Assembly (NCBI GenBank): GCA_947595585.1
Contig: CANQET010000001.1
Span: 1 to 64,000 of the forward strand
Origin: an uncultured Clostridia bacterium
GTDB taxonomy: Bacteria; Bacillota; Clostridia; Christensenellales; Borkfalkiaceae
Length of the DNA stretch: 64,000 nt
Direction of reading: 5' to 3'
In this document: positions 3,316 to 64,000 of the stretch, one piece after another
Position numbering within the stretch: the first letter of the stretch is position 1
Layout: every line of letters starts with the position of its first letter
Made by a program: the position numbers and the translations under genes
Notes under the pieces: model-generated
Database searches by the model: none
What the model was told of the DNA's origin: nothing
What the model saw: only the letters and a program-made list of their open reading frames with translations

Positions 3316-3684
3316 ATGATAACAAGAATCGATAAGAATGCGGTGAGACAGCGCCGTCATAAGCGCGTCCGCAAGACGCTCTCGGGAACGCCCGAATGCC
3401 CGCGCCTCTCCGTCTATAAGAGCACGAAGAACATCTACGTTCAGTTCATCGACGACGTCAACGGCCTCACGCTTGCATCCTGCTCCACGCTCGAGAAGAG
3501 CGTACAGAGCGAGATCGCGGGCAAGACCAAGACGGATGCCGCCAAGATCGTCGGCAAGATCGCCGGCGAGCGCGCCAAGGAGAAGGGGATCGCCACCGTC
3601 GTATTCGACCGCGGCGGCTACAACTACACGGGGCGCGTACAGGCAGTTGCGGACGGCGCACGCGAAGCCGGACTTCAGTTCTGA
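3316..3684 (+). CDS. rplR: 50S ribosomal protein L18
   Basis: L18 sequence and synteny. Confidence 0.98.
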
Positions 3685-3697
3685 AGGAGTATAGATC

Positions 3698-4216
3698 ATG
3701 GCAAGAGAAAACAGACCTCAGAGAAGACAGGAAGAAAACGACGGGCTCATCAAGAAGCTCATCGAGATCAATCGCGTGAGCAAGACCGTCAAGGGCGGCA
3801 AGAACATGCGCTTTGCGGCGCTTGTCGTCGTCGGTGACGGGGCAGGGCACGTCGGCTACGGCACGGGGAAGTCCAAGGAAGTCCCCGAGGCGATCGAGAA
3901 GGCGACGCAGGCTGCCAAGAAGAACATGATCAAAGTCTCCATCGTGGATACGACGATCCCGCACGAGGTGCTCGGGCGCTTCGGCAAGGGCGCGGTGCTT
4001 ATGCTCCCCGCCGCCGAAGGTACCGGCGTCATCGCGGGCGGTCCCGTCCGTGCCGTCATGGAGGCCGCGGGGATCAAGAATATCCGTACGAAATCGCACG
4101 GGACGCAGAACCCCGGCAACTGCATCAAGGCGACGGTCGCGGGGCTCGCAGAGCTCAAGACCGCCGAGGAGATCGCGGCGCTTCGCGGCAAGACCGTCGA
4201 AGAGATCATAGGCTGA
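3698..4216 (+). CDS. rpsE: 30S ribosomal protein S5
   Basis: [25 protein letters not shown]. Confidence 0.99.
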
Positions 4217-4226
4217 GGAGGGTAAC

Positions 4227-4406
4227 ATGGTCAAAGTCACTTTAATGAAGAGCCCCATCGGCGAGGTCAAGTCGGTCAAAGCGACGATCGCCGCCCTCGG
4301 TCTCACGAAGATCCGCACCTATAAGGTCTTTGCCGACAGCGAAACGCTGCGCGGGCAGATCAGAAAGGTCGCCCACCTCGTCAAGGTCGAAGAGGTAAAG
4401 GAGTAA
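4227..4406 (+). CDS. rpmD: 50S ribosomal protein L30 (59 aa, absent from the ORF track because of its length)
   Basis: Read directly: [62 protein letters not shown] gaggaggg; between rpsE and rplO. Confidence 0.96.
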
Positions 4407-4408
4407 AC

Positions 4409-4873
4409 ATGAGAATCGATACCATGAGAATCGATACGATCGCCCCCGCAGAGGGTGCGAGGACTACGGAAAAGCGGCTCGGCAGGGGCATCGGCTCCGG
4501 GCTCGGCAAGACGAGCGGCAAGGGCCATAAGGGCCAGTGGGCGCGTTCGGGCGGCGGCGTAAGGCCGGGCTTCGAAGGCGGCCAGATGCCTCTCGCCCGC
4601 AGGATCCCCAAGCGCGGCTTCCACAATAAGTGGGGCAAGGATTATGTGATCGTCAACATCTCCGCGCTCAACGATCTTCCCGCGGGGACCGAAGTCGATT
4701 ACGGCTACGTGCTCGAAAACGGGCTTGCGAAGGAAGTCAAGCACGACGCAGGGCTCAAAGTCCTCGGCGGCGGCGAGCTCAAAGTCGCACTCACGGTGCG
4801 CGCTGCGAAGTTCTCGGCGTCGGCGAAGGCCGCGATCGAGGCTGCGGGCGGTACGGCGGAAGTCCTCGAATGA
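4409..4873 (+). CDS. rplO: 50S ribosomal protein L15
   Basis: [21 protein letters not shown]. Confidence 0.98.
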
Positions 4874-4908
4874 CTTTCGCGTGCTACGGCGCTTGAAAGG
4901 AGTAAACT

Positions 4909-6261
4909 ATGTTTGAAACCATCAAAAACGCCTTACTCAACAAAGAGATCCGCAAGAAACTGTTGCTGACGCTTCTCCTTCTGCTCGTGTTCCGCGTCGG
5001 GTGCTATATCCCCGTGCCCGGTCTCGACAGGGGGGTGTTCTTCAACATCGTCAACGGCGAAGGCGGGAATGGCGGAAACGCTTTCTTGCAGCTCATGAGC
5101 GGCATCACGGGCGGCGCGCTCGCAAACGGCACGCTGTTCGCGCTCGGGATCGGGCCGTACATCAACGCGTCCATTATCATCCAGCTTCTCACGGTCGGCA
5201 TTCCCTATCTCGAGAACCTCTCGAAGCAGGGCGAAGAGGGGAGAAAGCGCATCACGTTCTTCACGCGCATCCTCACCATCATCCTCGCCATCATCCAATC
5301 CATCGGCATCATCGTCACCTTCGCGAACCAAAGCGGTGCCATCGCCACCGATTACTTCTTCGCAGTGGATATCGGCGAGGCGGGCGCCAAGTGGCTCGCA
5401 GGGATCTATATGACCATCGTCTACACGGGCGGCGCCATGCTCGTCATGTGGCTCGGTGAGCGCATCACCGATTTCGGCGTCGGCAACGGGATCTCGATGA
5501 TCATCTTCATCGGCATCATCTCCACGGCGGGTATCTCCGTCCTCAACGAGATCGAGCTCGTCTTCACGGAGAGCGCGGAACACCTTCTCAACATCGGTAT
5601 GTTCCTCATCATCACGGTCCTCGTGTTCTTTGCGATCGTGTATGTGGACCTCGCCGAACGGAAGATCCCCGTGCAATACGCCAAGCAGGTGCGCGGCACC
5701 AAGATGTACGGCGGCCAGAGCTCCGTCATTCCCATGAAGATCACGGGAAGCGGCGTCATGCCCCTCATCTTCGCGTTCGCGATCATCTCCTTCCCGTCCA
5801 TGCTCATCAGCCTCTTCTGGGGGAACACGCCCGCTGCGACGAATCTCCAGAACTGGTTCTCGGGCTCCTCGCCCAACTGGTACGGGCAGGTCCTCTACGC
5901 CCTCGCGCTCTGCATTCTCATCTTCATCTTCGCCTTCTTCTATGCGTCCATCGAGTTCAACCCCGACGACGTGGCGAAGCAGATCCAGGGCAACGGCGGA
6001 TTCATCCAAGGGATCCGTCCCGGCAAGCCGACGGCGGCCTACCTCAAGAAGATCAACAAGCGCATCACGCTCTTCGGTGCGATCTTCCTCACCCTTGTCG
6101 CGTTCATTCCCTCGGTGGCGTTCAGCTGGGCGGGTTCTTCCAACCTCGTCAACGTGTTCTCCACGACGGGGATCCTGATCGTCGTCTCTGTGGCTCTGGA
6201 ATTTGATAAGCAGTTACAGTCCCAGATCCTCATGAAAAACTACAAGGGGTTCCTGAAGTAA
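4909..6261 (+). CDS. secY: Protein translocase subunit SecY
   Basis: Multi-TM; RVGCYIPVPG, GIGPYINASIIIQLL. Confidence 0.99.
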   Translation: MFETIKNALLNKEIRKKLLLTLLLLLVFRVGCYIPVPGLDRGVFFNIVNGEGGNGGNAFLQLMSGITGGALANGTLFALGIGPYINASIIIQLLTVGIPYLENLSKQGEEGRKRITFFTRILTIILAIIQSIGIIVTFANQSGAIATDYFFAVDIGEAGAKWLAGIYMTIVYTGGAMLVMWLGERITDFGVGNGISMIIFIGIISTAGISVLNEIELVFTESAEHLLNIGMFLIITVLVFFAIVYVDLAERKIPVQYAKQVRGTKMYGGQSSVIPMKITGSGVMPLIFAFAIISFPSMLISLFWGNTPAATNLQNWFSGSSPNWYGQVLYALALCILIFIFAFFYASIEFNPDDVAKQIQGNGGFIQGIRPGKPTAAYLKKINKRITLFGAIFLTLVAFIPSVAFSWAGSSNLVNVFSTTGILIVVSVALEFDKQLQSQILMKNYKGFLK

Positions 6262-6265
6262 CGAG

Positions 6266-6535
6266 CGAACTGCGGATAAGCGGCGCAATACTTTGTACGG
6301 CGCGCTACGCGCTTGTGCCGCCGAAATGAGCAAATCGTTTTCATGTTGCTTGTTCTCGGCGTTCGAACTGCGCTTTCCTACTTCGCCTAACGGCTCGTGC
6401 CGCGCTTAGAGAATTAGAAGTGCGCGCGGGGCGGTCACGTACGCACAAGTACGCTCCCGTCGGAAATGCTCGTTCTCCTTGTCTTGCTTGCTTCTCCGCA
6501 GTTTAACGGTACCCGTTGTCGCTTATCACGAGCGA
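6266..6535 (+). repeat. Interspersed repeat family D, copy 1 (between secY and adk)
   Basis: GAACTGCGGATAAGCGGCGCAATACT ... GGCTCGTGCCGCGCTTAGAGAATTAGAAGTGCGCGCGGGG ... GTACCCGTTGTCGCTTAT, shared with 11782-11983 and inverted at 23483-23731. Confidence 0.85.
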
Positions 6536-6610
6536 AAGGCCTACCCCCATCGGGGGGAGGCTCCGCCGTAGGCGGTGGTGGGGGGCAAGGGAGACGACGA
6601 AGCCTATCAG

Positions 6611-6679
6611 TACGTCATTCCGAGGCGTTAGCCGAGGAATCTCGACTTTGTGATTTCTCACTACGTTCGAAATGACGTA
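6611..6679 (+). repeat. Interspersed hairpin repeat family A, copy 1
   Basis: TACGTCATTCCGA ... GAATCTC ... GATTTCTCACTACGTTCGAAATGACGTA, terminal inverted repeat. Confidence 0.85.
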
Positions 6680-6682
6680 TGT

Positions 6683-6716
6683 ACCCCCTCCCGCGGAGGG
6701 GGGTAGGGGGGTGGGC
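6683..6716 (+). repeat. G-rich repeat family B, copy
   Basis: ACCCCCTCCCGCGGAGGGGGGTAGGGGGGTGGGC. Confidence 0.85.
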
Positions 6717-6769
6717 AGAGAACGATACCCCCATCCCAAGCGATAATCCACACTTATCGAGGTTTTTGT

Positions 6770-7408
6770 ATGAAACTGATCCTACTCGGTGCGCCCGGCG
6801 CAGGCAAGGGCACGCAGGCAACGAAGATCTCCGATCGCTACGGTCTCGTCCATATCTCCACGGGCGACATCTTCCGTGCGAACATCAAAAACGGCACCGA
6901 GATCGGGCTGCTCGCGAAGTCGTATACCGATAAAGGCGAGCTCGTCCCCGACGAAGTGACCTGTGCGATCGTGAAGGACCGTCTCACGTGGGAGGACTGC
7001 AAGAAGGGGTACCTTCTCGACGGCTTCCCCCGCAACCTGTTTCAGGCGGAGGCGCTCGATACGTTTGCCGAGATCGACGGGGTCGTGAACATCAACATCG
7101 ATCACAAGCTCCTCATGGACCGTCTTTGCGGCAGGAGAGTTTGCAAGGAATGCGGCGAGAGCTACCACGTCTCCACCTTAAACGGCGCGACGACGTGCGC
7201 CCGCTGCGGTGGCGAACTCTATCGCAGGAAAGACGATAACCCCGAGACCGTGGGCGCCCGTCTTGCCGTCTACAACGAGCAGACGGCCCCGCTCATCGAC
7301 TACTACACGAAGAAGGGCAACATCCTGAACTTCACGGGCACGGAGGCTCCCGCCGAAGTGCTGTTCGAAGAGATCAAGAAAGTGCTCGACCGTCTTGCGC
7401 AGCAATGA
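6770..7408 (+). CDS. adk: Adenylate kinase, zinc-lid type
   Basis: GAPGAGKGTQA, CKECGESYH...CARCGGEL. Confidence 0.99.
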   Translation: MKLILLGAPGAGKGTQATKISDRYGLVHISTGDIFRANIKNGTEIGLLAKSYTDKGELVPDEVTCAIVKDRLTWEDCKKGYLLDGFPRNLFQAEALDTFAEIDGVVNINIDHKLLMDRLCGRRVCKECGESYHVSTLNGATTCARCGGELYRRKDDNPETVGARLAVYNEQTAPLIDYYTKKGNILNFTGTEAPAEVLFEEIKKVLDRLAQQ

Positions 7409-8148
7409 TCGTCGTAAAGAGCGAAGATGAGATCGCGCGCATGCGGGAACCCTGCGCCGTCGTCCGCGACTGCCTCGCCTACATCGGGGAGAAGATCACA
7501 GCGGGCATGACGACGCGGGAGGTCGATGCGCTCGTCGAGCAATTCATCCGTGCGCAGGGCGCGATCCCTTCCTGCCTCGGCTACGGCGGCTTTCCCGCCT
7601 CGGCCTGCGTCTCGGTCAACGAAGTCGTGGTGCACGGCATCCCGGGCGAGCGCGTCCTCCGCGAGGGGGATATCGTGAGCGTGGACCTCTGCGCCTACAA
7701 AAACGGCTTCCACGGCGACGGCGCACGCACCTTCTGTATCGGGAAGGTCAGCGCGGAGAAAGAGAAACTTGTGCGCATCACCGAAGAATGCTTCTATGCG
7801 GGCATCGACGGGGTGAAAGCGGGTACGCCGCTCGGCGATATCGGCTTCCGCGTCCAGAAACATGCCGAGGAGCACGGGTTTTCGGTCATCCGCGCCTACA
7901 CGGGGCACGGCATCGGCCGTGAAATGCACGAAGACCCCGCCGTGCCCAATTTCGGGCGGCAGGGTGCGGGCATCCGTCTCCCCGCAGGCGCCGTCATCTG
8001 CGTCGAACCCATGATCGCCGCGGGCAAGTGGCGGGTCAAGGTGCTTCCCGACGGCTGGACGGCCGTCATGGCAGACGGGCGCCCCGCCGCGCATTACGAG
8101 AACACGCTGGTCGTCCGCGAGGACGGCGTCGAGATCCTCACCCTTTGA
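7405..8148 (+). CDS. map: Methionine aminopeptidase type I
   Basis: [20 protein letters not shown]; 4-nt overlap with adk. Confidence 0.98.
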
Positions 8149-8164
8149 GGTGAACGGAGGTAGT

Positions 8165-8386
8165 ATGTCGAAGGACGACGTCATCGAAACCGAAGGAAAA
8201 GTCATCGAAGCGCTCCCCAATGCCGCGTTCAAAGTGCGGCTCACCAACGGGCACGTCATCACGGCGTATATTTCGGGGAAGCTCAGAATGAACTACATCC
8301 GCATCATCGAAGGCGACAATGTGAAGCTCGAGATGAGCCCCTACGATCTCACCAAAGGTCGCATCACGTGGCGCAGCAAGAACTGA
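8165..8386 (+). CDS. infA: Translation initiation factor IF-1
   Basis: [47 protein letters not shown]. Confidence 0.98.
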
Positions 8387-8425
8387 AGCCATTTCCAAAC
8401 CAAAATAACAGCGAGGTAATTCCCT

Positions 8426-8542
8426 ATGAAAGTCAGACCTTCCGTAAAGCCCATGTGCGATAAGTGCAAAGTCATCAAGAGAAACGGAAAAGTTATGGTC
8501 ATCTGCTCGAAAAATAAGAGCCATAAGCAAAGACAGGGTTAA
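8426..8542 (+). CDS. rpmJ: 50S ribosomal protein L36 (38 aa, absent from ORF track)
   Basis: Read directly: [38 protein letters not shown]. Confidence 0.98.
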
Positions 8543-8549
8543 AAATCAG

Positions 8550-8578
8550 TTGACACAAGCTGTTTCCTATGCTATAAT
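8550..8578 (+). promoter_or_regulatory. Sigma-A-type promoter inside the alpha operon, upstream of rpsM
   Basis: TTGACA (8550-8555), 17 nt, TATAAT (8573-8578). Confidence 0.85.
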
Positions 8579-8822
8579 GTATATTGCGGCTTTTGGAAGA
8601 AAACCGCAAAAATGCATGATCTCAAGCTGAATTTCCGCAGCGGAAGGTTGCGGAGACTCGGCTTGCTTTGCGCTTGATAAGGGCGGTTTTTCCCCCGAAA
8701 AGGCGCAAAAAAATGCGAAAATTCCCGCTTTCGGGGTGCGTACTTTCCACTGCGCACCGCAAAGAACGGACGACATAGAAAAATTCTTATTATTTTACCA
8801 AATCAACGGAGGTTTCAAGTAC

Positions 8823-9191
8823 ATGGCACGTATTGCCGGTGTGGATTTGCCGAGAGAGAAGCGGGTCGAGATCGGCCTCACCTACATCTACGGGATCGGA
8901 CTTACGACGTCGAAGAAGATCTTGGCGGAGACGGGGATCAATCCCGATACCCGCGTGAAGGATCTCAATGAGAACGACGTCTCCAAGCTCAGAGAGTATA
9001 TCGACCACCACCTCACCGTGGAGGGCGAACTCAGAGGACAAGTTAGCCTCAACATCAAGCGCCTGATGGAGATCGGGTGCTATCGCGGCGTGCGCCACAG
9101 AAAGGGCTTGCCCGTACGCGGACAGAGCACGAAGCGCAACGCGCGGACCCGCAAAGGGCCTCGCCGTACGGTCGCGAACAAGAAGAAGTAA
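8823..9191 (+). CDS. rpsM: 30S ribosomal protein S13
   Basis: [26 protein letters not shown]; start downstream of ORF-track start, RBS ggaggttt. Confidence 0.98.
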
Positions 9192-9203
9192 GGAGGCGAA
9201 GAC

Positions 9204-9602
9204 ATGGCAGCAGCAAAGAAGTCGGTTGCTTCGCGCAAACGCAGAGAGATCAAGAAGGTCGACCGCGGACAGGTGCACATCCAGTCCACGTTCAACAATA
9301 CCATCGTTACCATCACGGATATGAACGGCAATGTTATCTCGTGGTCGAGTGCGGGCGCTCTGAAATACCGCGGCTCGCGCAAGGGTACGCCGTTCGCAGC
9401 GCAGATGGCGGCTGAGACGGCAGCCAAGGCGGCCAAGGAACATGGGCTTCGCTCCGTCGAAGTCTACGTGAAGGGTCCCGGTGCGGGCAGAGAGTCCGCG
9501 ATCCGCGCGCTCGCGAATTGCGACCTCGAGGTCACGCTCATTTCCGACGTTTCGCCCGTCGCGCACAACGGGTGCCGTCCGCCCAAGCGCAGAAGAGTTT
9601 AA
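9204..9602 (+). CDS. rpsK: 30S ribosomal protein S11
   Basis: S11 sequence and synteny. Confidence 0.99.
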
Positions 9603-11223: not shown

Positions 11224-11730
11224 ATGCCCGGGAAATTAGGCAGAACAACGGAGCAGCGCCTCGCCATCTTGCGCAATCAGGCGTCCCAGCTCCTCTGGTA
11301 CGGTAGGATCGAGACGACGTTGGCACGCGCGAAAGAGCTTCAGCCCTACGTCGAGAAGCTCATCACCAAGGCGATCAATACCTATGAGGACGTCGTCGAG
11401 ATCGAGGTCGTCACCAAGGATAAGAAGGGCAAGGACGTCAAGACCAAGTCGTATAAAGACGGCCCCAAGAAGCTCGCGGCACGCCGCTATTGCATGGCGA
11501 AGACCTACGACCTTCAGGAGATCAAGCCCTTCGCGGAGAAGAAGAGCGACTTCAAGAAGCGCACGGGGAAGGTCAACCATCCCCTCATGGAGAAGCTCTT
11601 CAATGAGATCGCACCCAAGTACGCCGAACGCAAGGAAGAGCTCGGCCAGGGCGGCGGCTACACCCGCATCTATCGCCTCGGCGAGCGGCGCGGGGATGCT
11701 TCGGAAGAGGCGATCATAGAACTTGTATAA
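11224..11730 (+). CDS. rplQ: 50S ribosomal protein L17
   Basis: KLGRTTEQRLAILRNQASQLLWYGRIETTLARAKEL. Confidence 0.98.
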   Translation: MPGKLGRTTEQRLAILRNQASQLLWYGRIETTLARAKELQPYVEKLITKAINTYEDVVEIEVVTKDKKGKDVKTKSYKDGPKKLAARRYCMAKTYDLQEIKPFAEKKSDFKKRTGKVNHPLMEKLFNEIAPKYAERKEELGQGGGYTRIYRLGERRGDASEEAIIELV

Positions 11731-11731
11731 G

Positions 11732-11762
11732 GAAAAAACCGCACATGAGGTGCGGTTTTTTC
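11732..11762 (+). terminator. Intrinsic terminator of the rplQ end
   Basis: aaaaaaCCGCACatgaGGTGCGGtttttt hairpin with T-tract. Confidence 0.9.
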
Positions 11763-11781
11763 ATGCTTGTTTGGACTTCGT

Positions 11782-11983
11782 AAGAGCGAACTGCGGATAA
11801 GCGGCGCAATACTGTGTCGAACTGCGCTTTCCTACTTCGCCTACGGCTCGTGCCGCGCTTAGAGAATTAGAAGTGCGCGCGGGGCGGTCGTGTACACAAG
11901 TACACTCCCGTCGGAAATGCTCGTTCTCCTCGTTCTGCTTGCTTCTCCGCAGTTTAACGGGTACCCGTTTTCGCTCATGATGG
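11782..11983 (+). repeat. Interspersed repeat family D, copy 2
   Basis: Near-identical block GCGAACTGCGGATAAGCGGCGCAATACT...GCCGCGCTTAGAGAATTAGAAGTGCGCGCGGGGCGGTCGTGTAC. Confidence 0.85.
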
Positions 11984-12299
11984 GCAAGACGGTGCTCGAC
12001 CATGTCATTCCGAGGCGTAGCCGAGGAATCTCATTCTAATAACGCCATGTTGAGCTTGTCGCCCCGCGCTCCTCGTTCTGCTTGCTTCTCCGCAGTTTGA
12101 CGGTACCCGTTTTCGTTCCTCCAAAGCGACCTCATTCCGAGCCCCGTTAGGGGCGAGAGAATCTTAAGATACACTCGCTACGCTACTTCGCCGAACGGCT
12201 CGTGCCGTGCTTCGATAAACAATAGAAGCCCCGCACGGGGCGGTATGAGGGTTGGACTTCGTATTGGCCTCGCGCGACACCCCTCTGCGGCTTATTTCA

Positions 12300-12424
12300 A
12301 GCGCCACCCCCTCCATTGGGAAACAGAAGACCACCACTCCTCCATTGGAGAACAGAATGCATACCCCCTCCATTGGAGAACAGATCACATACCCCCTCCA
12401 TTGGAGGGGGGTAGGGGGGTGGGC
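12300..12424 (+). repeat. Local tandem array of family B left halves ending in a full family B unit
   Basis: Four successive CCCC/TCCTCCATTGG(G/A)(A)AACAGA units then ACCCCCTCCATTGGAGGGGGGTAGGGGGGTGGGC. Confidence 0.85.
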
Positions 12425-12638
12425 AGGTGACGACGGGGCATATTCGGAGCGCAAGGCCTACCCCCATCGGGGTCGCAAAGCGCAATTCTCGCGGAAAGCA
12501 CAGTGCGCTTTTCGCGGCGCTTTGCGGTGAGTGAGCGCATCGGAAGGCGCGAACGGTGACCGAACGCGGGGCTCTACCCGCGTGAGACGGCTCCGCGTAG
12601 CGGTGGTGGGGGGCAAGGGAGACGACGGGGCCTATCAG

Positions 12639-12710
12639 TACGTCATTCCGACGACCGTAGGGAGGAGGAATCTCGTCTTTGAGATTTCTCACTACGTTCG
12701 AAATGACGTA
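12639..12710 (+). repeat. Hairpin repeat family A, copy 2
   Basis: TACGTCATTCCGACGACCGTAGGGAGGAGGAATCTCGTCTTTGAGATTTCTCACTACGTTCGAAATGACGTA. Confidence 0.9.
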
Positions 12711-12711
12711 G

Positions 12712-12800
12712 CCCTCCTCTATTGGAAAACAGACCACCACCCCCTCCATTGGAGAACAGACCACATACCCCCTCCATCGGAGGGGGGTAGGGGGGTGGGC
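12712..12800 (+). repeat. Second tandem array of family B units
   Basis: CCTCCTCTATTGGAAAACAGACC-ACCACCCCCTCCATTGGAGAACAGACC-ACATACCCCCTCCATCGGAGGGGGGTAGGGGGGTGGGC. Confidence 0.85.
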
Positions 12801-12828
12801 AGAAGACGACGAAGCGTATCCCGAGCGT

Positions 12829-12940
12829 CCCTTGGCTCCCATTGTAGGGGAGCTGTCGCGGCGTAAGACGCGGCTGAGGGGTTCGAAACCCTATCCCCTG
12901 CTACGCAGGTACTTCCCCTACGAGGGGAAGCAAGGGGTAA
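12829..12940 (+). repeat. Interspersed repeat family C, copy 1
   Basis: CTTGGCTCCCATTGTAGGGGAGCTGTCGCGGCGTAAGACGCGGCTGAGGGGTTCGAAACCCTATCCCCTGCTACGCAGGTACTTCCCCTACGAGGGGAAGCAAGGGG. Confidence 0.88.
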
Positions 12941-13273
12941 ACTTCGTACAGGCTTCCCCCGAAGTGGCAACGAGGGGTCGGACTACGCGGGTATTTCCCG
13001 AAAAAGTGCAACGAGGGGTCGGACTTCGCACCCCTCGTCTTTCTTTATGCCCACGCCCAAACATATGCACAAAGGGGCATGTGCAAAACATGCGGCGGGG
13101 GGCATATGCGAAAAAACCCCGCCGAGTGCCCTAAGCGACATATGCGGCATACGGCACCCGTCGCACATATGTTGCGCCCTGCATGCGGTCCGCATATGCA
13201 CGTCCGCACATCGGTTTTTTCGCCGCGGCAGGGAGTCGGCTGCGGGAAGTTCGGCCGAGCTGCCGCAAAATCC

Positions 13274-22977: not shown

Positions 22978-23290
22978 ACGATACAGGTACCCCGTCAAAC
23001 GTCATTTCGCCCCGACCGCAGCTTCTATTTGTTCTACTAAGGTCGGCACGAGCCGTAGGCGAAGTTACCAAGTAGAGAAATCTCAAGTAGAATTAAGACT
23101 GCGGCGATTCTTCGACAAGCTCAGAATGACGTTATTAGAACGAGATTCCTCCTCCCTACGGTCGTCGGAATGACGTACTGATGAGCAAATACGAAGTCCG
23201 CAACCCCTCCGTGGTTCATCTCAAGTAATACCCCCTCCGTGGGAGGGGGACCAAGGGGGTGGGCGGCGACAAGGCAAATACGAAGTCCGT

Positions 23291-23403
23291 CCCCTTGCTG
23301 CCCCTTTAGGGGAAGTACCTGCGTCAGCAGGGGATAGGGTTCCCAAAACCCCTCAGCCGCGTCTTACGCCGCGACAGCTCCCCTACGAGGGGAGCCAAGG
23401 GGT
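23291..23403 (-). repeat. Interspersed repeat family C, copy 2 (inverted)
   Basis: Reverse complement of the family C consensus. Confidence 0.88.
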
Positions 23404-23482
23404 CGCTCTGAATACGCCCCGTCGGTCTCCTGCCCACCCCCCTACCCCCCTCCGCGGGAGGGGGTAGCGCACAGGATGAGCG

Positions 23483-53404: not shown

Positions 53405-53517
53405 GCCCCTCGGCTCCCCTTGCAGGGGAGCTGTCGCGGCGTAAGACGCGGCTGAGGGGTTTTTGAAACCCTATCCCCTGCTACGCAGGTACTTCCCCTA
53501 AAAGGGGAAGCAAGCGG
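53405..53517 (+). repeat. Interspersed repeat family C, copy 3
   Basis: CGGCTCCCCTTGCAGGGGAGCTGTCGCGGCGTAAGACGCGGCTGAGGGG... Confidence 0.88.
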
Positions 53518-53541
53518 ATGGACTTCGTAGGGGCACATCAG

Positions 53542-53613
53542 TACGTCATTCCGACGACCGTAGGGAGGAGGAATCTCGACTTTGAGATTTCTCACTAACG
53601 TTCAAAATGACGT
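53542..53613 (+). repeat. Hairpin repeat family A, copy 4
   Basis: Same consensus; small changes in the right arm. Confidence 0.88.
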
Positions 53614-53638
53614 GCGCCATGCATGGGCTTTTCTGCCG

Positions 53639-53740
53639 CCCCACCCCCTTAATCCCCCTCCCACGGAGGGGGTAGTGGACTGCGTAGGGGCACATCTTGT
53701 GCAACACCCCCCTCCATTGGAGGGGGTAGGGGGGTGGGCA
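53639..53740. repeat. Two family B units in opposite orientation
   Basis: CCACCCCCTTAATCCCCCTCCCACGGAGGGGGTAG and ACCCCCCTCCATTGGAGGGGGTAGGGGGGTGGGC. Confidence 0.82.
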
Positions 53741-53908
53741 GATGACCGATGGGGGTAGGGCTTTCGGACTTCGTATCTTCCCCGTCGTGCATCATGCAAA
53801 AAGCCCCGGGGGGGCTCGGGGCAAAGGGCGTAAAGATGAAAACAAGGGCGCAAAACGGGCAATAAAATTGCAGGGGTAGGCCGAAAACGAGGGGGCCTAC
53901 CTACTTTT

Positions 53909-58534: not shown

Positions 58535-58750
58535 TCAAGTTACGTCGAAGAGTTCGTTCGGCGTGATACCATAGAGGGCGCAGAGGGCGAGTATCTGTGC
58601 ATAGTTGAGTTCGAAAACGCCTGTTTCGAAGCGGCTGTATTGCTGCTGCGTCATGAGCATCTTCGCAGCGACTTCCTTTTGTGTCAGCCCTGCATCCCGC
58701 CGCGCCAATTTCAGGTTTTGCCCGATTTTCTTTGCGATGTCCATATTCAA
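58535..58750 (-). CDS. Small XRE-family HTH regulator (71 aa)
   Basis: IGQNLKLARRDAGLTQKEVAAKMLMTQQQYSRFETGV. Confidence 0.9.
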   Translation of the reverse strand: MNMDIAKKIGQNLKLARRDAGLTQKEVAAKMLMTQQQYSRFETGVFELNYAQILALCALYGITPNELFDVT

Positions 58751-58753
58751 ATT

Positions 58754-58807
58754 ATCACCATAAAGTGATGTAAAATTCTTGACTTACATCATTTTATGAT
58801 GTATAAT
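58754..58807 (+). promoter_or_regulatory. Promoter/operator of the TIR gene
   Basis: TTGACT (58779-58784)-17-TATAAT (58802-58807); palindrome ACATCA-TTTTA-TGATGT in spacer; second palindrome ATCAC-CATAAA-GTGAT at 58754-58769. Confidence 0.8.
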
Positions 58808-58908: not shown

Positions 58909-61905
58909 ATGGAGCTTACGGAACTTCTATGTAAAACTTGTGAGGCGCGCCTCGATCCCGGCCGCGCGCAGAACAACGTCATCTTCTGCGAGCATTGCGG
59001 GAATGCCTACATCTTGCCGCGGAAGGAGACTTCCCCCAAGGCGCTTTCCTTCCTGCGCATGGGCGAGCACGAGCTCGACGTGTGCAAGTTCGACGACGCA
59101 TTGAATGCCTACGAGAAGGCCGCCGAGGCCGATAAGACCGAACCCGAGGCCTACTTCGGCATGGCGCTCTCCGAGTTCAAAGTGCAATATCTGAAGGATG
59201 AGACGGCCGATCCGCCCCACCTGCAGCCCATCTGCCACGAGATCTCCGAGAAGCGCTTCACCGAGAATAAGAACTTTCAGCGCGCCCTGTCGCTCGCAAG
59301 CGGCGCACAGAAGGAGGCGTATGAGAAGAAGGGAGACGAGATCGACCGCATCCGCAGCGAGTTCTTGCGCCTCAAGGAGAGCGGCCTCGATTACGACTGC
59401 TTCCTCTGCGTGAAGGTCTCCTCGGAGGACGGCGGTACGACGCAGGATAGCCACGAGGCCCTCAAGCTCTATCACTACCTCAAGGAACGCGGCTATACGC
59501 CCTTCTATTCGGAAGAAGAGATCAAGGGCCGCACGGGCGTCGACTACGAGGCCCTCATCCTGTATGCCCTTTATACCTCGGAGTGCATGCTCATCGTATG
59601 CAGCAACGAGGAATATTTGCAGACCAAGTGGGTGAAGAACGAATATACCCGCTTTGCGAAGATGATCGTGCGGGAAGGAAAGGAGCACGACGCCATCACC
59701 TTTGTCTTCCGCGGCAAGCCCATCGAGCGCCTCCCCGGGCAGGACGGCAAGATCCAAGGCATCGACCTATCCAAGCCCGACGCCTATTCTCGGATCGAGG
59801 AATATATCTCCTCGTTCCGCCGCATCCCGTTGGAATCCCTCGAGATCAAGCGGAAGGAATACAAGGGGTCGGCCTATACCAAAAAGCAGACCATGCGCCA
59901 CAGTGTCACGAAGCGCACGTTGGAGACGGTAGAGAGCGAGATCAAGATCTCCAACCCTGCGCAGCTCAAGATCGCGAAGGACATGATGCACCGCAACGAT
60001 TTCGTGAATACGAAGAAATACCTCAACAACATGCTCAATGAGAACCCGACGGACGGCGAGGCATATTATCTTCGCTTCCTTACCTCGCTTTCCTGCCCCG
60101 ATGAGCATGCGTTCTATCGGTATAAGCGGAGCAAGAACCTTGATTTCTCCGATTTTGAAAAGGCGATCGCCTGCACGCAGGATCCCGCCCGCCGCAGCGA
60201 ACTTTACGACATCCTCTATCGCAACGTCGTGGAGACGAAGAACCTGTCTTCCTACAAGGAATACATCGAACTTCCCGAGAGCGACGCAAAGAAGATCGGC
60301 GAGCTCACCGAAGTCATGTATCAATTGGCGTTAGAGACGCGCAGCGAACAAGTTTTCGATGAAGCGTTGAAGACGGTGACGGATACCGATAAATACATCG
60401 GGATGAACTTCAAGTTCGCAGAACTCTTCGATCGCACCGATCCGCAGCTTGCGATGAAGTATTATAAAAACATTCTCGATGCGGATGAGGGCTCCGCCGA
60501 GGCCCTTTGGAAAGTATTTTATTTGGAGAAGGGGCAAGATGATCAGGCGGTCTTCGGTGCCTTTTTGGAAGGTGGCGCCGCGGCATTTGAGGAAGCGCTC
60601 TTTTCCTACGGTTTCAATGCGTATGCGCATGAAAACCTCTTCAAGGTTTGCCTTGAATTTTCGGCATCCCGCCCCGAAGACGTCTGCCGCCTGTTCGATT
60701 TCCTGCTCACGATGATCCCCAAAACGAAAAACAAGATTTTCACTGCCGATCTTCGTTCGTTCATCGAAACGATGCTGAAAAACGATCGCGTCAATTATAT
60801 TGCAAAATATAATGAACTGCTGCTCAGCATCGAAAAAATGGACCACACGGCATATTTTAACCGCGTGCTGATCAAGCATAAGTATCACAATCCCTTTGAG
60901 CTCGTCAATATCGCGGAGACGCTTTTGGACGATCCCGATTACTTTTCGGCAATCAATATTTTTACAGAAAAATTCCCGGATCAGAATAATCTCTACCTTG
61001 ATATCAACGACGCATTGAAAAGCCTCGCAAGTAATATAAAAGATGCGGAATGCAGAAAATTTATCGCCGATACTTGTTATATTCAGAAAGAAGATCTTGC
61101 GCGTTGCAACAAACGGGTCATGCAGTGCTTGCGGAGCGAAGCATTAGATTGCATCGGCAGACTTTGCGAAAAATATGGGTGCGCGGATGTAGATGCGCTC
61201 TTTGAATTGCGGGAGGATGTCACATCGGATCCGCTTCTGCTTCGCGCCGACCTGTTTGCGCGCGTTTCTAAGGCCGAGACGGCAGCGGTCACACAGCACA
61301 TTTTATTTGAGCAAGCAGTTGCATGTAAAAAAAATATCATAGCAGATAAGCATGCATTGCGCGACCGCAAGCGGGAGAAATGCAAGTCTATAGCATATAA
61401 CATATATATTGCGGTTGTATGCATAATTTCGTTTGCTACGATCGCATCCGTAATTGTTTTATTATCAATGCTTGGTGTATCGGAATGGGATAGCAATGAT
61501 CACATTTTTTTGGCACACGGGAGCGGCCTCTTTGTAGACATAGCCAACTATTATTACAGCCTGTTTGATTTTGAGCCGTCACTCGCGGTACTTGTAATGA
61601 CAATCCCGGTTTCCGTGCCATTTTTAGCCATGACGATTGCAATTCTTTGCTTCAGAAAGCAAAGGAAAGGACGAGCGATTTACTTTTCGGTTCTCATATT
61701 GATTGCTTCCGGGTTAATACATGGTTTCGGTATCTCTAATTGGAACAAAAATAAAGACATGATAGAGCGTTACAGCAATATCGACACCGCGCCCGTCGTA
61801 ATGAATGATTTTTCCGTACCCAGTGATGCAATTTCCGTCATCGATGAGATCAACCAATCACAAGAAGAGTTCGTAGTCTTATTTGATTGCGCTTCTGAAT
61901 TTTAA
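58909..61905 (+). CDS. Zinc-ribbon / TPR-like / TIR-domain protein with C-terminal transmembrane segments (998 aa)
   Basis: CKTCEARL...FCEHCGNAYILP; TIR region about aa 160-295 (YDCFLCVKVSS...YTPFYSEEEIKGRTGVDYEALILYALYTSECMLIVCSNEEYLQTKWVKNEYTRF); three C-terminal hydrophobic segments. Confidence 0.85.
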   Translation: MELTELLCKTCEARLDPGRAQNNVIFCEHCGNAYILPRKETSPKALSFLRMGEHELDVCKFDDALNAYEKAAEADKTEPEAYFGMALSEFKVQYLKDETADPPHLQPICHEISEKRFTENKNFQRALSLASGAQKEAYEKKGDEIDRIRSEFLRLKESGLDYDCFLCVKVSSEDGGTTQDSHEALKLYHYLKERGYTPFYSEEEIKGRTGVDYEALILYALYTSECMLIVCSNEEYLQTKWVKNEYTRFAKMIVREGKEHDAITFVFRGKPIERLPGQDGKIQGIDLSKPDAYSRIEEYISSFRRIPLESLEIKRKEYKGSAYTKKQTMRHSVTKRTLETVESEIKISNPAQLKIAKDMMHRNDFVNTKKYLNNMLNENPTDGEAYYLRFLTSLSCPDEHAFYRYKRSKNLDFSDFEKAIACTQDPARRSELYDILYRNVVETKNLSSYKEYIELPESDAKKIGELTEVMYQLALETRSEQVFDEALKTVTDTDKYIGMNFKFAELFDRTDPQLAMKYYKNILDADEGSAEALWKVFYLEKGQDDQAVFGAFLEGGAAAFEEALFSYGFNAYAHENLFKVCLEFSASRPEDVCRLFDFLLTMIPKTKNKIFTADLRSFIETMLKNDRVNYIAKYNELLLSIEKMDHTAYFNRVLIKHKYHNPFELVNIAETLLDDPDYFSAINIFTEKFPDQNNLYLDINDALKSLASNIKDAECRKFIADTCYIQKEDLARCNKRVMQCLRSEALDCIGRLCEKYGCADVDALFELREDVTSDPLLLRADLFARVSKAETAAVTQHILFEQAVACKKNIIADKHALRDRKREKCKSIAYNIYIAVVCIISFATIASVIVLLSMLGVSEWDSNDHIFLAHGSGLFVDIANYYYSLFDFEPSLAVLVMTIPVSVPFLAMTIAILCFRKQRKGRAIYFSVLILIASGLIHGFGISNWNKNKDMIERYSNIDTAPVVMNDFSVPSDAISVIDEINQSQEEFVVLFDCASEF

Positions 61906-61922
61906 TGATATCGCACAAATTG

Positions 61923-61957
61923 CACCCCGCCGATGTAATGCATCGGCGGGGTGTTTG
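61923..61957 (+). terminator. Terminator after TIR gene
   Basis: CACCCCGCCGATGtaatgCATCGGCGGGGTGttt. Confidence 0.8.
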
Positions 61958-62056
61958 CTATGCTCTTTTTCCCAAACGCGGGGACACGTGGTAGTTTATT
62001 CCGCGCGTACCCCCTCCGTGGGGCAATGTGCCCAGACACGGTGCATCTTATGCGAT

Positions 62057-62090
62057 ACCCCCTCCATTGGAGGGGGGTAGGGGGGTGGGC
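62057..62090 (+). repeat. G-rich repeat family B copy
   Basis: ACCCCCTCCATTGGAGGGGGGTAGGGGGGTGGGC. Confidence 0.85.
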
Positions 62091-62111
62091 GGAAGACGAC
62101 GGGGCGCATCA

Positions 62112-62238
62112 GTACGTCATTCCGCCCTGTGCGAGGCTTCTATTGTTTATCGAAGCACGGCACGAGCGCGTAGCGCGAAGTAGGCGTGAGCCGAGGAATC
62201 TCGTTCTTTGAGATTTCTCACTACGTTCGAAATGACGT
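62112..62238 (+). repeat. Hairpin repeat family A, copy 6, with an internal insertion resembling part of family D
   Basis: TACGTCATTCCG ... cttctattgtttatcgaagcacggcacgag ... GAGCCGAGGAATCTCGTTCTTTGAGATTTCTCACTACGTTCGAAATGACGT. Confidence 0.8.
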
Positions 62239-62399
62239 GCTCCATTCATGGGCCTTGTCGTGCTCCATTCTTTGCCCCCCATCCGTCACGGCTATGCCGT
62301 GCCACCCTCCCCCCGATGGGGGTAGGGCTTTCGGACTTCGTAGTTGCCCCGTCGCCGCCCCACCCCCTTGATCCCCCTCCCACGGAGGGGGTAGAGCGA

Positions 62400-62469
62400 T
62401 ACGTCATTCCGAGGCGTGAGCCGAGGAATCTCGTTCTTTGAGATTTCTCACTACGTTCGAAATGACGTA
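62400..62469 (+). repeat. Hairpin repeat family A, copy 5
   Basis: TACGTCATTCCGAGGCGTGAGCCGAGGAATCTCGTTCTTTGAGATTTCTCACTACGTTCGAAATGACGTA. Confidence 0.9.
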
Positions 62470-62471
62470 GA

Positions 62472-62524
62472 CACCCCCTCCATTGGAGAACAGCCCCCCC
62501 CTCCATTGGAGGGGGGTAGGGGGC
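62472..62524 (+). repeat. Family B partial tandem copy
   Basis: CACCCCCTCCATTGGAGAACAG-CCCCCCCTCCATTGGAGGGGGGTAGGGGG. Confidence 0.85.
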
Positions 62525-63336: not shown

Positions 63337-63509
63337 GGCTTTTACCTCGTTTTTGCTCAAATTATACACGCTCTCGCCGCAGATTGCAAGCATTTTCACG
63401 CGCTTTCGCCGAAAGTCTCGAAGTTGCATTTGGCGTGAGTCGACGACGGTAGAAAGGGCGGACGAAGAGGCAAGACGCGACGACGGACGACGGGGCCAAT
63501 TATGCGCGA

Positions 63510-63544
63510 CCCCCCCTCCATTGGAGGGGGGTAGGGGGGTGGGC
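63510..63544 (+). repeat. G-rich repeat family B copy
   Basis: CCCCCCTCCATTGGAGGGGGGTAGGGGGGTGGGC. Confidence 0.85.
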
Positions 63545-63572
63545 AGGAGACGATGGGGCGTATCTCGAGCGA

Positions 63573-63683
63573 GCCCTTGGCTCCCCTTGCAGGGGAGCTG
63601 GCACGGCGTAGCCGTGACTGAGGGGTTTTGAAACCCTATCCCCCGCTGACGCGGGTACTTCCCCTATGAGGGGAAGCGAGGGG
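63573..63683 (+). repeat. Interspersed repeat family C, copy 4
   Basis: CTTGGCTCCCCTTGCAGGGGAGCTGGCACGGCGTAGCCGTGACTGAGGGG... Confidence 0.88.
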
Positions 63684-63798
63684 ACGGACTTCGTACTTGC
63701 TTTTTTGCCGCCCCACCCCCTTGATCCCCCTCCCACGGAGGGGGTAGTGCTCGGGATAAACCCCGTAGGGGGTAGGGCTTTCGGACTGCGGAATTTTC

Positions 63799-63827
63799 TT
63801 GACAGCGGGGGCGGGATGCAGTATAAT
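63799..63827 (+). promoter_or_regulatory. Promoter of second zinc-ribbon gene
   Basis: TTGACA-17-TATAAT. Confidence 0.8.
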
Positions 63828-63851: not shown

Positions 63852-64000
63852 ATGGAAATGCAAGGCTACAAATGTAAGACATGCGGCGGACTTCTCGACG
63901 AAGCACGCTCTTCCGCGCGCGATGGGCTCGTCGTATGCCCCTATTGCGGAAACACGTGGACACTCCCCAAGAAGGGTACTTCTCCCGCCGCGCTCGAATT
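63852..64000 (+). CDS. N-terminus of a paralogue of the zinc-ribbon/TIR protein (truncated by window end)
   Basis: Read directly: MEMQGYKCKTCGGLLDEARSSARDGLVVCPYCGNTWTLPKKGTSPAALEF, aligned with ELLCKTCEARLDPGRAQNNVIFCEHCGNAYILPRKETSPKALSF. Confidence 0.75.
   Translation, partial: MEMQGYKCKTCGGLLDEARSSARDGLVVCPYCGNTWTLPKKGTSPAALE

What the first reader, a model, noticed from the sequence alone, without database searches (positions are those of the whole stretch)
58909..61905. Membrane-linked zinc-ribbon/TPR/TIR protein with a SARM1-like catalytic Glu context
Seen: one 998-aa ORF joins a CxxC/CxxC zinc ribbon, a TPR-like segment, a TIR domain, a long helical repeat region and three hydrophobic C-terminal segments. 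The TIR contains W241-V-K-N-E245 (E245 codon at 59641-59643). Established: in the SARM1 NADase TIR the catalytic Glu sits at W+4 (WVHKE), and many bacterial TIR proteins cleave or cyclise NAD in anti-phage defence (Thoeris, TIR-STING, Pycsar-TIR families). Inference: this may be an NAD-consuming effector or signalling protein at the membrane, with the ribbon/TPR part as sensor. I know of no characterised system with this architecture.
Basis: partly seen in the sequence, partly recalled or inferred. Interest (0 to 1): 0.8.

Follow-up and report, generated by a model that had tools for sequence, protein, structure and literature searches.

The report
Membrane-linked TIR receptor gene family
A gut bacterium carries about nine copies of a TIR protein whose conserved front end is joined to different sensor-like back ends, and one copy sits in an operon of membrane-remodelling genes, which looks like an undescribed repertoire of membrane sensors or defence receptors.

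Summary
The ORF is real: 998 aa with zinc ribbon, TPR, TIR, TPR-like solenoid and three TM helices. The TIR fold is confirmed by sequence and AlphaFold. The proposed catalytic Glu (E245) is nearly invariant in 58 homologues and aligns with the catalytic Glu of plant RUN1; but TLR2 keeps the same W-x3-E, so NAD cleavage is plausible, not shown.

The protein is not a one-off. The 1.69-Mb genome has about nine paralogues (another starts at 63852). All share the ZnR-TPR-TIR front end or its TIR. Back ends differ: LRR, coiled coil + LRR, TPR + TM, multi-TM; in relatives also ankyrin, RCC1 and lectin-like DUF6273. Paralogues exchange sequence (513 identical bp inside 81%-identical genes). Most copies are orphans beside housekeeping genes, not in defence islands. 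One paralogue lies in a seven-gene operon with an SPFH protein, two weakly Snf7/ESCRT-III-like proteins, a double AAA+ ATPase and a trypsin-like protease. Close extra TIR copies track this operon (6/6 versus 2/36 genomes); SPFH genes adjoin 30/76 family loci.

Best reading: TIR receptors with interchangeable sensors, coupled to a membrane-remodelling hub. Chemistry and trigger are untested. No description of this combination was found in the paper library searched.

The parts
58909..61905 (+). The TIR family gene of the finding (C1a), 998 aa
   Evidence: open frame, Pfam, paralogues
58930..58998 (+). Zinc ribbon, CxxC at aa 8-11 and aa 27-30
   Evidence: positions; cysteines conserved in at least 90% of rows
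59035..59175 (+). TPR unit, aa 43-89
   Evidence: Pfam TPR_14 aa 50-86; helices in the model
59386..59811 (+). TIR domain, aa 160-301
   Evidence: Pfam TIR_2, AlphaFold model, Foldseek, profile match to plant TIRs and TLR2
59641..59643 (+). Codon of E245, the candidate catalytic Glu
59956..61323 (+). All-helical, TPR-like solenoid, aa about 350-805
   Evidence: AlphaFold model, weak TPR superhelix matches, Pfam TPR_19 aa 507-547
60027..60539 (+). 513-bp block identical to paralogue C4a: recent gene conversion or recombination
61408..61464 (+). Predicted TM segment 1 (aa about 834-852)
   Evidence: hydropathy
61588..61644 (+). Predicted TM segment 2 (aa about 894-912)
   Evidence: hydropathy
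61678..61734 (+). Predicted TM segment 3 (aa about 924-942)
   Evidence: hydropathy
58535..58750 (-). Divergent XRE/Cro-type regulator, 71 aa
   Evidence: Pfam HTH_3 1.4e-11
58766..58807 (+). Sigma-70-like promoter (TTGACT-17-TATAAT, 58779-58807) overlapped by inverted repeats TGATGTAA-N10-TTACATCA and TACATCAT-TTT-ATGATGTA, a likely operator
63852..64000 (+). Start of paralogue C1b (928 aa, runs off the window; G000:C1:63852-66638)
63799..63827 (+). Consensus sigma-70-like promoter of C1b (12 of 12)

Best explanation
The gene is one of about nine paralogues, in this gut Clostridia genome, of a large modular TIR family. A constant front end of about 310 aa (zinc ribbon, TPR, TIR) is the signalling module; interchangeable C-termini serve as sensor and/or membrane anchor. 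The family is genetically tied to a membrane-surface system: an SPFH protein, paired Snf7-like coiled-coil proteins, a double AAA+ ATPase and a trypsin-like protease. Proposed mechanism (inferred): the solenoid/TM part of this copy detects a change at the membrane, such as phage entry or envelope damage; the TIR modules cluster; and the clustered TIRs cleave or cyclise NAD through E245, or recruit the SPFH/AAA+ hub, or both. Shown here: architecture, family, C-terminal diversity, sequence exchange, operon linkage, co-occurrence. Inferred: sensing, clustering, NAD chemistry, and conflict rather than pure membrane maintenance.
For: Nine family genes in one genome with a shared front end and different C-termini; LRR, RCC1, ankyrin and DUF6273 C-termini in relatives. 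Gene conversion: 513 bp identical against a shuffle maximum of 85. Near-invariant Glu aligned with the RUN1 catalytic Glu; purifying selection on the TIR. Seven-gene operon around paralogue C15, repeated in L099, L103, L104, L106, L126 and L128; SPFH within 4 kb of 30 of 76 loci; the only Band_7_1 gene of this genome is the one in that operon. Close extra TIR copies in 6 of 6 genomes with the Snf7-like gene against 2 of 36 without.
Against: The gene of the finding is an orphan, not in the operon. No enzyme assay; W-x3-E also occurs in TLR2. The Snf7 match is below Pfam's cut-off, no solved structure matched it and no MIT domain was found in the AAA+ protein. Co-occurrence is not corrected for relatedness. 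Few known defence genes nearby.
Confidence: 0.5

Rival explanations
1. Stand-alone anti-phage abortive-infection effector: the C-terminal part senses phage, the TIR depletes NAD or makes a cADPR-type signal, and the cell stops growing. The operon is incidental.
For: TIR with conserved Glu; patchy distribution, 0 to 9 copies within one genus; weak matches of family members to ThcB4 (28 of 52, best 7.3e-8), PDC-S66 (15 of 52, best 1.1e-8) and ThsB; own promoter and XRE regulator.
Against: No PADLOC match for the protein itself; neighbours mostly housekeeping; no match in phage or plasmid records; operon linkage and co-occurrence unexplained.
Confidence: 0.2
2. The TIR is a non-enzymatic assembly module, as in TLR/MyD88: it builds oligomers that recruit the SPFH/AAA+ hub.
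For: Best Foldseek hits are MyD88 and TRAM TIRs; TLR2 shares W-x3-E; partners are assembly and membrane proteins.
Against: E245 is kept in 57 of 58 homologues and the profile is closest to plant TIR-NLRs, several of which are NADases (general knowledge).
Confidence: 0.2
3. A membrane-maintenance (envelope stress) component without any role in conflict, comparable to Psp/Ydj systems.
For: Partners resemble the band-7 + zinc ribbon and PspA/Snf7 + AAA+ contexts of Ravi et al. 2024 (PMC11237479); housekeeping surroundings.
Against: High copy number, gene conversion and swapping of ligand-binding repeats look more like a recognition repertoire.
Confidence: 0.1

Closest known systems
Thoeris TIR proteins (ThsB; NCBIfam type III ThcB4)
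   Same: TIR domain with conserved Glu; 28 of 52 family members match the ThcB4 model weakly
   Different: Far below the curated cut-off (17.2 against 220 bits); no effector partner recognised; different architecture (ZnR-TPR before, solenoid/LRR/TM after the TIR)
Plant TIR-NLR receptors (RUN1, ROQ1)
   Same: Best profile matches in PDB; TIR joined to ligand-binding repeats including LRR in many paralogues; multigene, recombining family
   Different: No NB-ARC/STAND NTPase found; TIR is preceded by zinc ribbon and TPR; many members have TM helices
Bacterial STAND/NLR-like conflict systems (Avs-type; DGR-diversified sensors, PMC10907252)
   Same: Constant effector end with variable C-terminal sensor; TPR or lectin-like sensors; trypsin-like partner in some loci
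   Different: No NTPase in the same chain; AAA+ is a separate CbbX/CDC48-type gene; DGRs not looked for here
Psp/ESCRT-III-like membrane systems, YdjFGHI-type (PMC11237479)
   Same: SPFH with C-terminal zinc ribbons, Snf7/PspA-like coiled coils, AAA+ ATPase
   Different: That paper's 'Tir' is the CesT/Tir chaperone, not the TIR domain; a TIR partner is not described in the passages found; Snf7 similarity here is weak
DUF6273 / tentaclin-type hypermutable lectin-like domains (PMC10743442)
   Same: Some relatives end in DUF6273, modelled as C-type-lectin-like in phages
   Different: The window's protein has no DUF6273, and no DGR was looked for

Membership tests
TIR domain superfamily (Pfam TIR_2) | Sequence match above the curated cut-off and TIR fold | tested here: met
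   43.4 bits against 28; AlphaFold and Foldseek
NAD-consuming TIR (SARM1/RUN1 type) | Catalytic Glu at W+4 | tested here: met
   E245, 57/58 homologues, aligned to the RUN1 Glu; necessary, not sufficient, since TLR2 has it too
NAD-consuming TIR (SARM1/RUN1 type) | NAD hydrolysis or cyclisation | not testable with these tools
   needs an assay
Thoeris | TIR protein reaching the family model's cut-off | tested here: not met
   PADLOC: no match; ThcB4 14.9 bits full length, 17.2 bits front end, cut-off 220
Thoeris | Cognate effector gene (ThsA or equivalent) next to it | tested here: not met
   Neighbours are a cysteine-desulfidase-like gene, an XRE regulator, a PdxY-like kinase and paralogue C1b by sequence inspection; no ThsA recognised
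NLR/STAND receptors | NB-ARC/NACHT/STAND NTPase in the chain | tested here: not met
   No NTPase match in the protein or in the paralogues scanned
Snf7/ESCRT-III-like membrane operon (paralogue C15) | SPFH and AAA+ genes in the same operon | tested here: met
   Band_7_1 6e-15, AAA 6.3e-53; met for C15, not for the gene of the finding
Snf7/ESCRT-III-like membrane operon (paralogue C15) | True Snf7/ESCRT-III proteins | tested here: inconclusive
   4 of 11 match Pfam Snf7, best 1.2e-4, first member 18.6 bits against 27.3; no PDB match
Snf7/ESCRT-III-like membrane operon (paralogue C15) | MIT domain on the AAA+ partner (Vps4) | tested here: not met
   No MIT match in three N-termini
Defence-island genes | Enrichment next to known defence genes | tested here: not met
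   4 of 67 neighbours match PADLOC at 1e-15; most are housekeeping

The most novel reading that the evidence does not exclude
A bacterial receptor repertoire without an NLR NTPase: one conserved ZnR-TPR-TIR signalling module, multiplied and recombined with swappable LRR, ankyrin, RCC1, lectin-like or TPR-TM sensors, all reporting to one ESCRT-like/SPFH/AAA+ membrane machine, so that TIR NAD signalling and membrane remodelling are joined in one bacterial immune or stress system.
Probability: 0.3. Interest if true: 0.9.

Novelty: new variant of a known kind. Interest (0 to 1): 0.7.

Why it matters
TIR signalling, receptor repertoires and ESCRT-type remodelling are usually studied apart. A widespread gut-bacterial family that joins one conserved TIR module to exchangeable sensors, and stands in SPFH/Snf7-like/AAA+ operons, would be a testable bacterial counterpart of receptor gene families and of membrane repair coupled to NAD signalling. 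It is common in gut Clostridia and no description was found in the libraries searched.

Tried and rejected
SARM1-specific motif: rejected as diagnostic, because TLR2 shares W-x3-E. Thoeris membership: rejected. Defence-island context: not found. Phage or plasmid carriage: no match in phage or plasmid records; the viral-contig scan failed four times, so carriage by uncultured viruses is untested. Vps4 label for the AAA+ protein: dropped, no MIT match; it is CbbX-like plus CDC48-like. Phylum-wide profile search undercounts because only five candidates per genome were scored; prevalence is taken. Empty-site comparison was weak: synteny is loose, though in genome G007, which has no family copy, the homologous upstream gene pair is followed by an unrelated gene.

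Full report
OBSERVATION. The ORF at 58909-61905 (+) codes for 998 aa. It has CxxC pairs starting at aa 8 and 27, TPR, a TIR (Pfam TIR_2 5.8e-11), an all-helical region and three hydrophobic segments. AlphaFold on 52 homologues gives a confident model for aa 1-315 (pLDDT 91.3, pTM 0.86), and Foldseek finds TIR domains (MyD88, TIR-STING, SPARTA). The rest models as a helical solenoid, aa about 350-805, pLDDT about 90, from only five rows; its PDB matches are TPR superhelices with low TM-scores.

THE GLUTAMATE. E245 is present in 57 of 58 homologues collected by homology search and invariant in the 52-row alignment, with D163, F165, K169, T178, L191, F199, E214, I217, W241 and R248. A TIR-only profile matches plant TIR-NLRs best (RUN1, 5.8e-7). 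E245 falls on the Glu of RUN1 that is replaced by Ala in the entry 7s2z, the catalytic Glu (from general knowledge). The same profile matches TLR2, which also has W-x3-E. The motif is therefore consistent with NAD catalysis but does not show it.

A GENE FAMILY. The own genome (1.69 Mb, 96.7% complete) has nine TIR genes of this kind plus one degenerate relative. C-termini: TPR-like solenoid + TM (this gene and its neighbour C1b, which starts at 63852), solenoid + TM + LRR_5 (C4a), coiled coil + LRR_5 (C5, C14, C16), coiled coil + TPR + TM (C4c), repeats + multi-TM (C15); C4b is a zinc ribbon with two TIRs. Relatives add RCC1, ankyrin and DUF6273; DUF6273 models as a C-type-lectin-like fold and is hypermutated by DGRs in phages (PMC10743442). 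The front end occurs in 43 of 248 genomes of the order and in 23 of 338 of the class with a distant query. At least 577 loci in GTDB genomes encode relatives; those listed are mostly gut Clostridia, with some Bacilli, Spirochaetales and Chloroflexi MAGs. Many loci are tandem arrays of two to four.

DIVERSIFICATION. C1a and C4a share a run of 513 identical bases inside genes that are 81% identical over the compared part; the longest run in 2000 codon-column shuffles was 85. C14/C16 share 245 bases and C5/C14 228, both beyond every shuffle; C5/C16 (162) is not significant. This is gene conversion or recombination between paralogues. In C5/C16 the TIR differs at 5 of 150 residues but at 11 of 59 fourfold sites, which indicates purifying selection, while the C-terminal part differs at 171 of 273 residues. 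The front end is held constant and the back end varies.

CONTEXT. Orphan copies, this one included, have mostly housekeeping neighbours (by sequence inspection MutS/MutL beside C16 and RuvB/QueA beside C14). In own and related loci only 4 of 67 neighbours match PADLOC models at 1e-15, and the neighbours that NCBIfam names are mostly metabolic enzymes. This gene has its own promoter, overlapped by two inverted repeats, and a divergent XRE-type regulator; the inverted repeats were not found upstream of the other paralogues, so this copy is probably regulated on its own.

THE OPERON. Paralogue C15 lies in a seven-gene same-strand cluster (locus L018 coordinates): SPFH-zinc ribbon 3463-4494, a 112-aa protein 4513-4851, two Snf7-like coiled-coil proteins 4860-5456 and 5468-6034, TIR 6140-9505, AAA-AAA 9529-11604, zinc-ribbon trypsin-like protease 11663-12418. 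L099, L103, L104, L106, L126 and L128 hold the same set or most of it. Elsewhere TIR genes stand beside an SPFH gene and a membrane protein of about 233 aa: SPFH within 4 kb of 30 of 76 loci, the membrane protein in 21. The own genome has exactly one Band_7_1 gene, the one in this operon, so chance adjacency is unlikely. Caveats: the Snf7 match is below Pfam's cut-off, no solved structure matched, and no MIT domain was found on the AAA+ protein.

CO-OCCURRENCE. Of 42 genomes of the same family-level group examined, six hold the Snf7-like gene, and all six carry further close TIR copies; of the other 36 only two do (hypergeometric count 5e-6, not corrected for relatedness). In a further set of 54 genomes of the order, 13 hold the gene, none of them among the 19 without a TIR member, and in many the TIR gene lies within a few kb. 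Because the operon contains a TIR gene, part of this is built in; the informative part is the extra copies outside it. It suggests that orphan copies work with the operon.

MECHANISM. Most likely these are receptors with a shared TIR module and interchangeable C-terminal sensors, acting at the membrane with the SPFH/AAA+ hub. Clustering would switch on NAD chemistry through E245 or recruit the hub. Shown: architecture, family, diversity, exchange, linkage. Inferred: sensing, clustering, chemistry, purpose. I put about 0.95 on the family and architecture, 0.7 on the link to the membrane system, 0.5 on NAD catalysis and 0.45 on conflict or defence.

KNOWN OR NEW. It is not a Thoeris member by the tests made. 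It works somewhat like a TIR-NLR repertoire but lacks the NTPase. The partner genes resemble Psp/Ydj contexts (PMC11237479); in the passages found there no TIR domain partner is described. Paper searches found no description of this combination; that library is incomplete. I rate it a new variant of a known kind.

Noticed in passing
61905-62130, 62332-62523, 63480-63760, 53407-53757, 23229-23480, 12389-12949: A dispersed intergenic repeat family (about 50-240 bp, 84-100% identical) recurs in the window and next to other paralogues (C4a, C15); one copy begins right after the stop codon of both C1a and C4a.
   Followed up: partly
58766-58807: Two overlapping inverted repeats lie on the promoter of the TIR gene and were not found upstream of the other paralogues; this copy may be under the divergent XRE regulator alone.
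   Followed up: partly
L018:3463-12418: Seven-gene operon SPFH, small protein, two Snf7-like proteins, TIR, AAA-AAA, trypsin-like protease; deserves a study of its own.
   Followed up: partly
L120:7241-7984; L150:4178-6904: DUF6273 (lectin-like, DGR-hypermutable in phages) at the C-terminus of TIR family members and as a neighbouring gene; no search for DGR reverse transcriptases was made.
   Followed up: no
L019:7864-9864: A 666-aa zinc-ribbon/TPR relative (C22) whose TIR-like stretch lacks the W-x3-E signature, next to a BspA-like LRR ORF.
   Followed up: no
L013:7374-8906: A 510-aa zinc-ribbon protein with two TIR domains sits 34 bp from a TrmFO-like gene and upstream of HslVU-like genes, apparently inside a housekeeping operon (neighbours named by inspection).
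   Followed up: no
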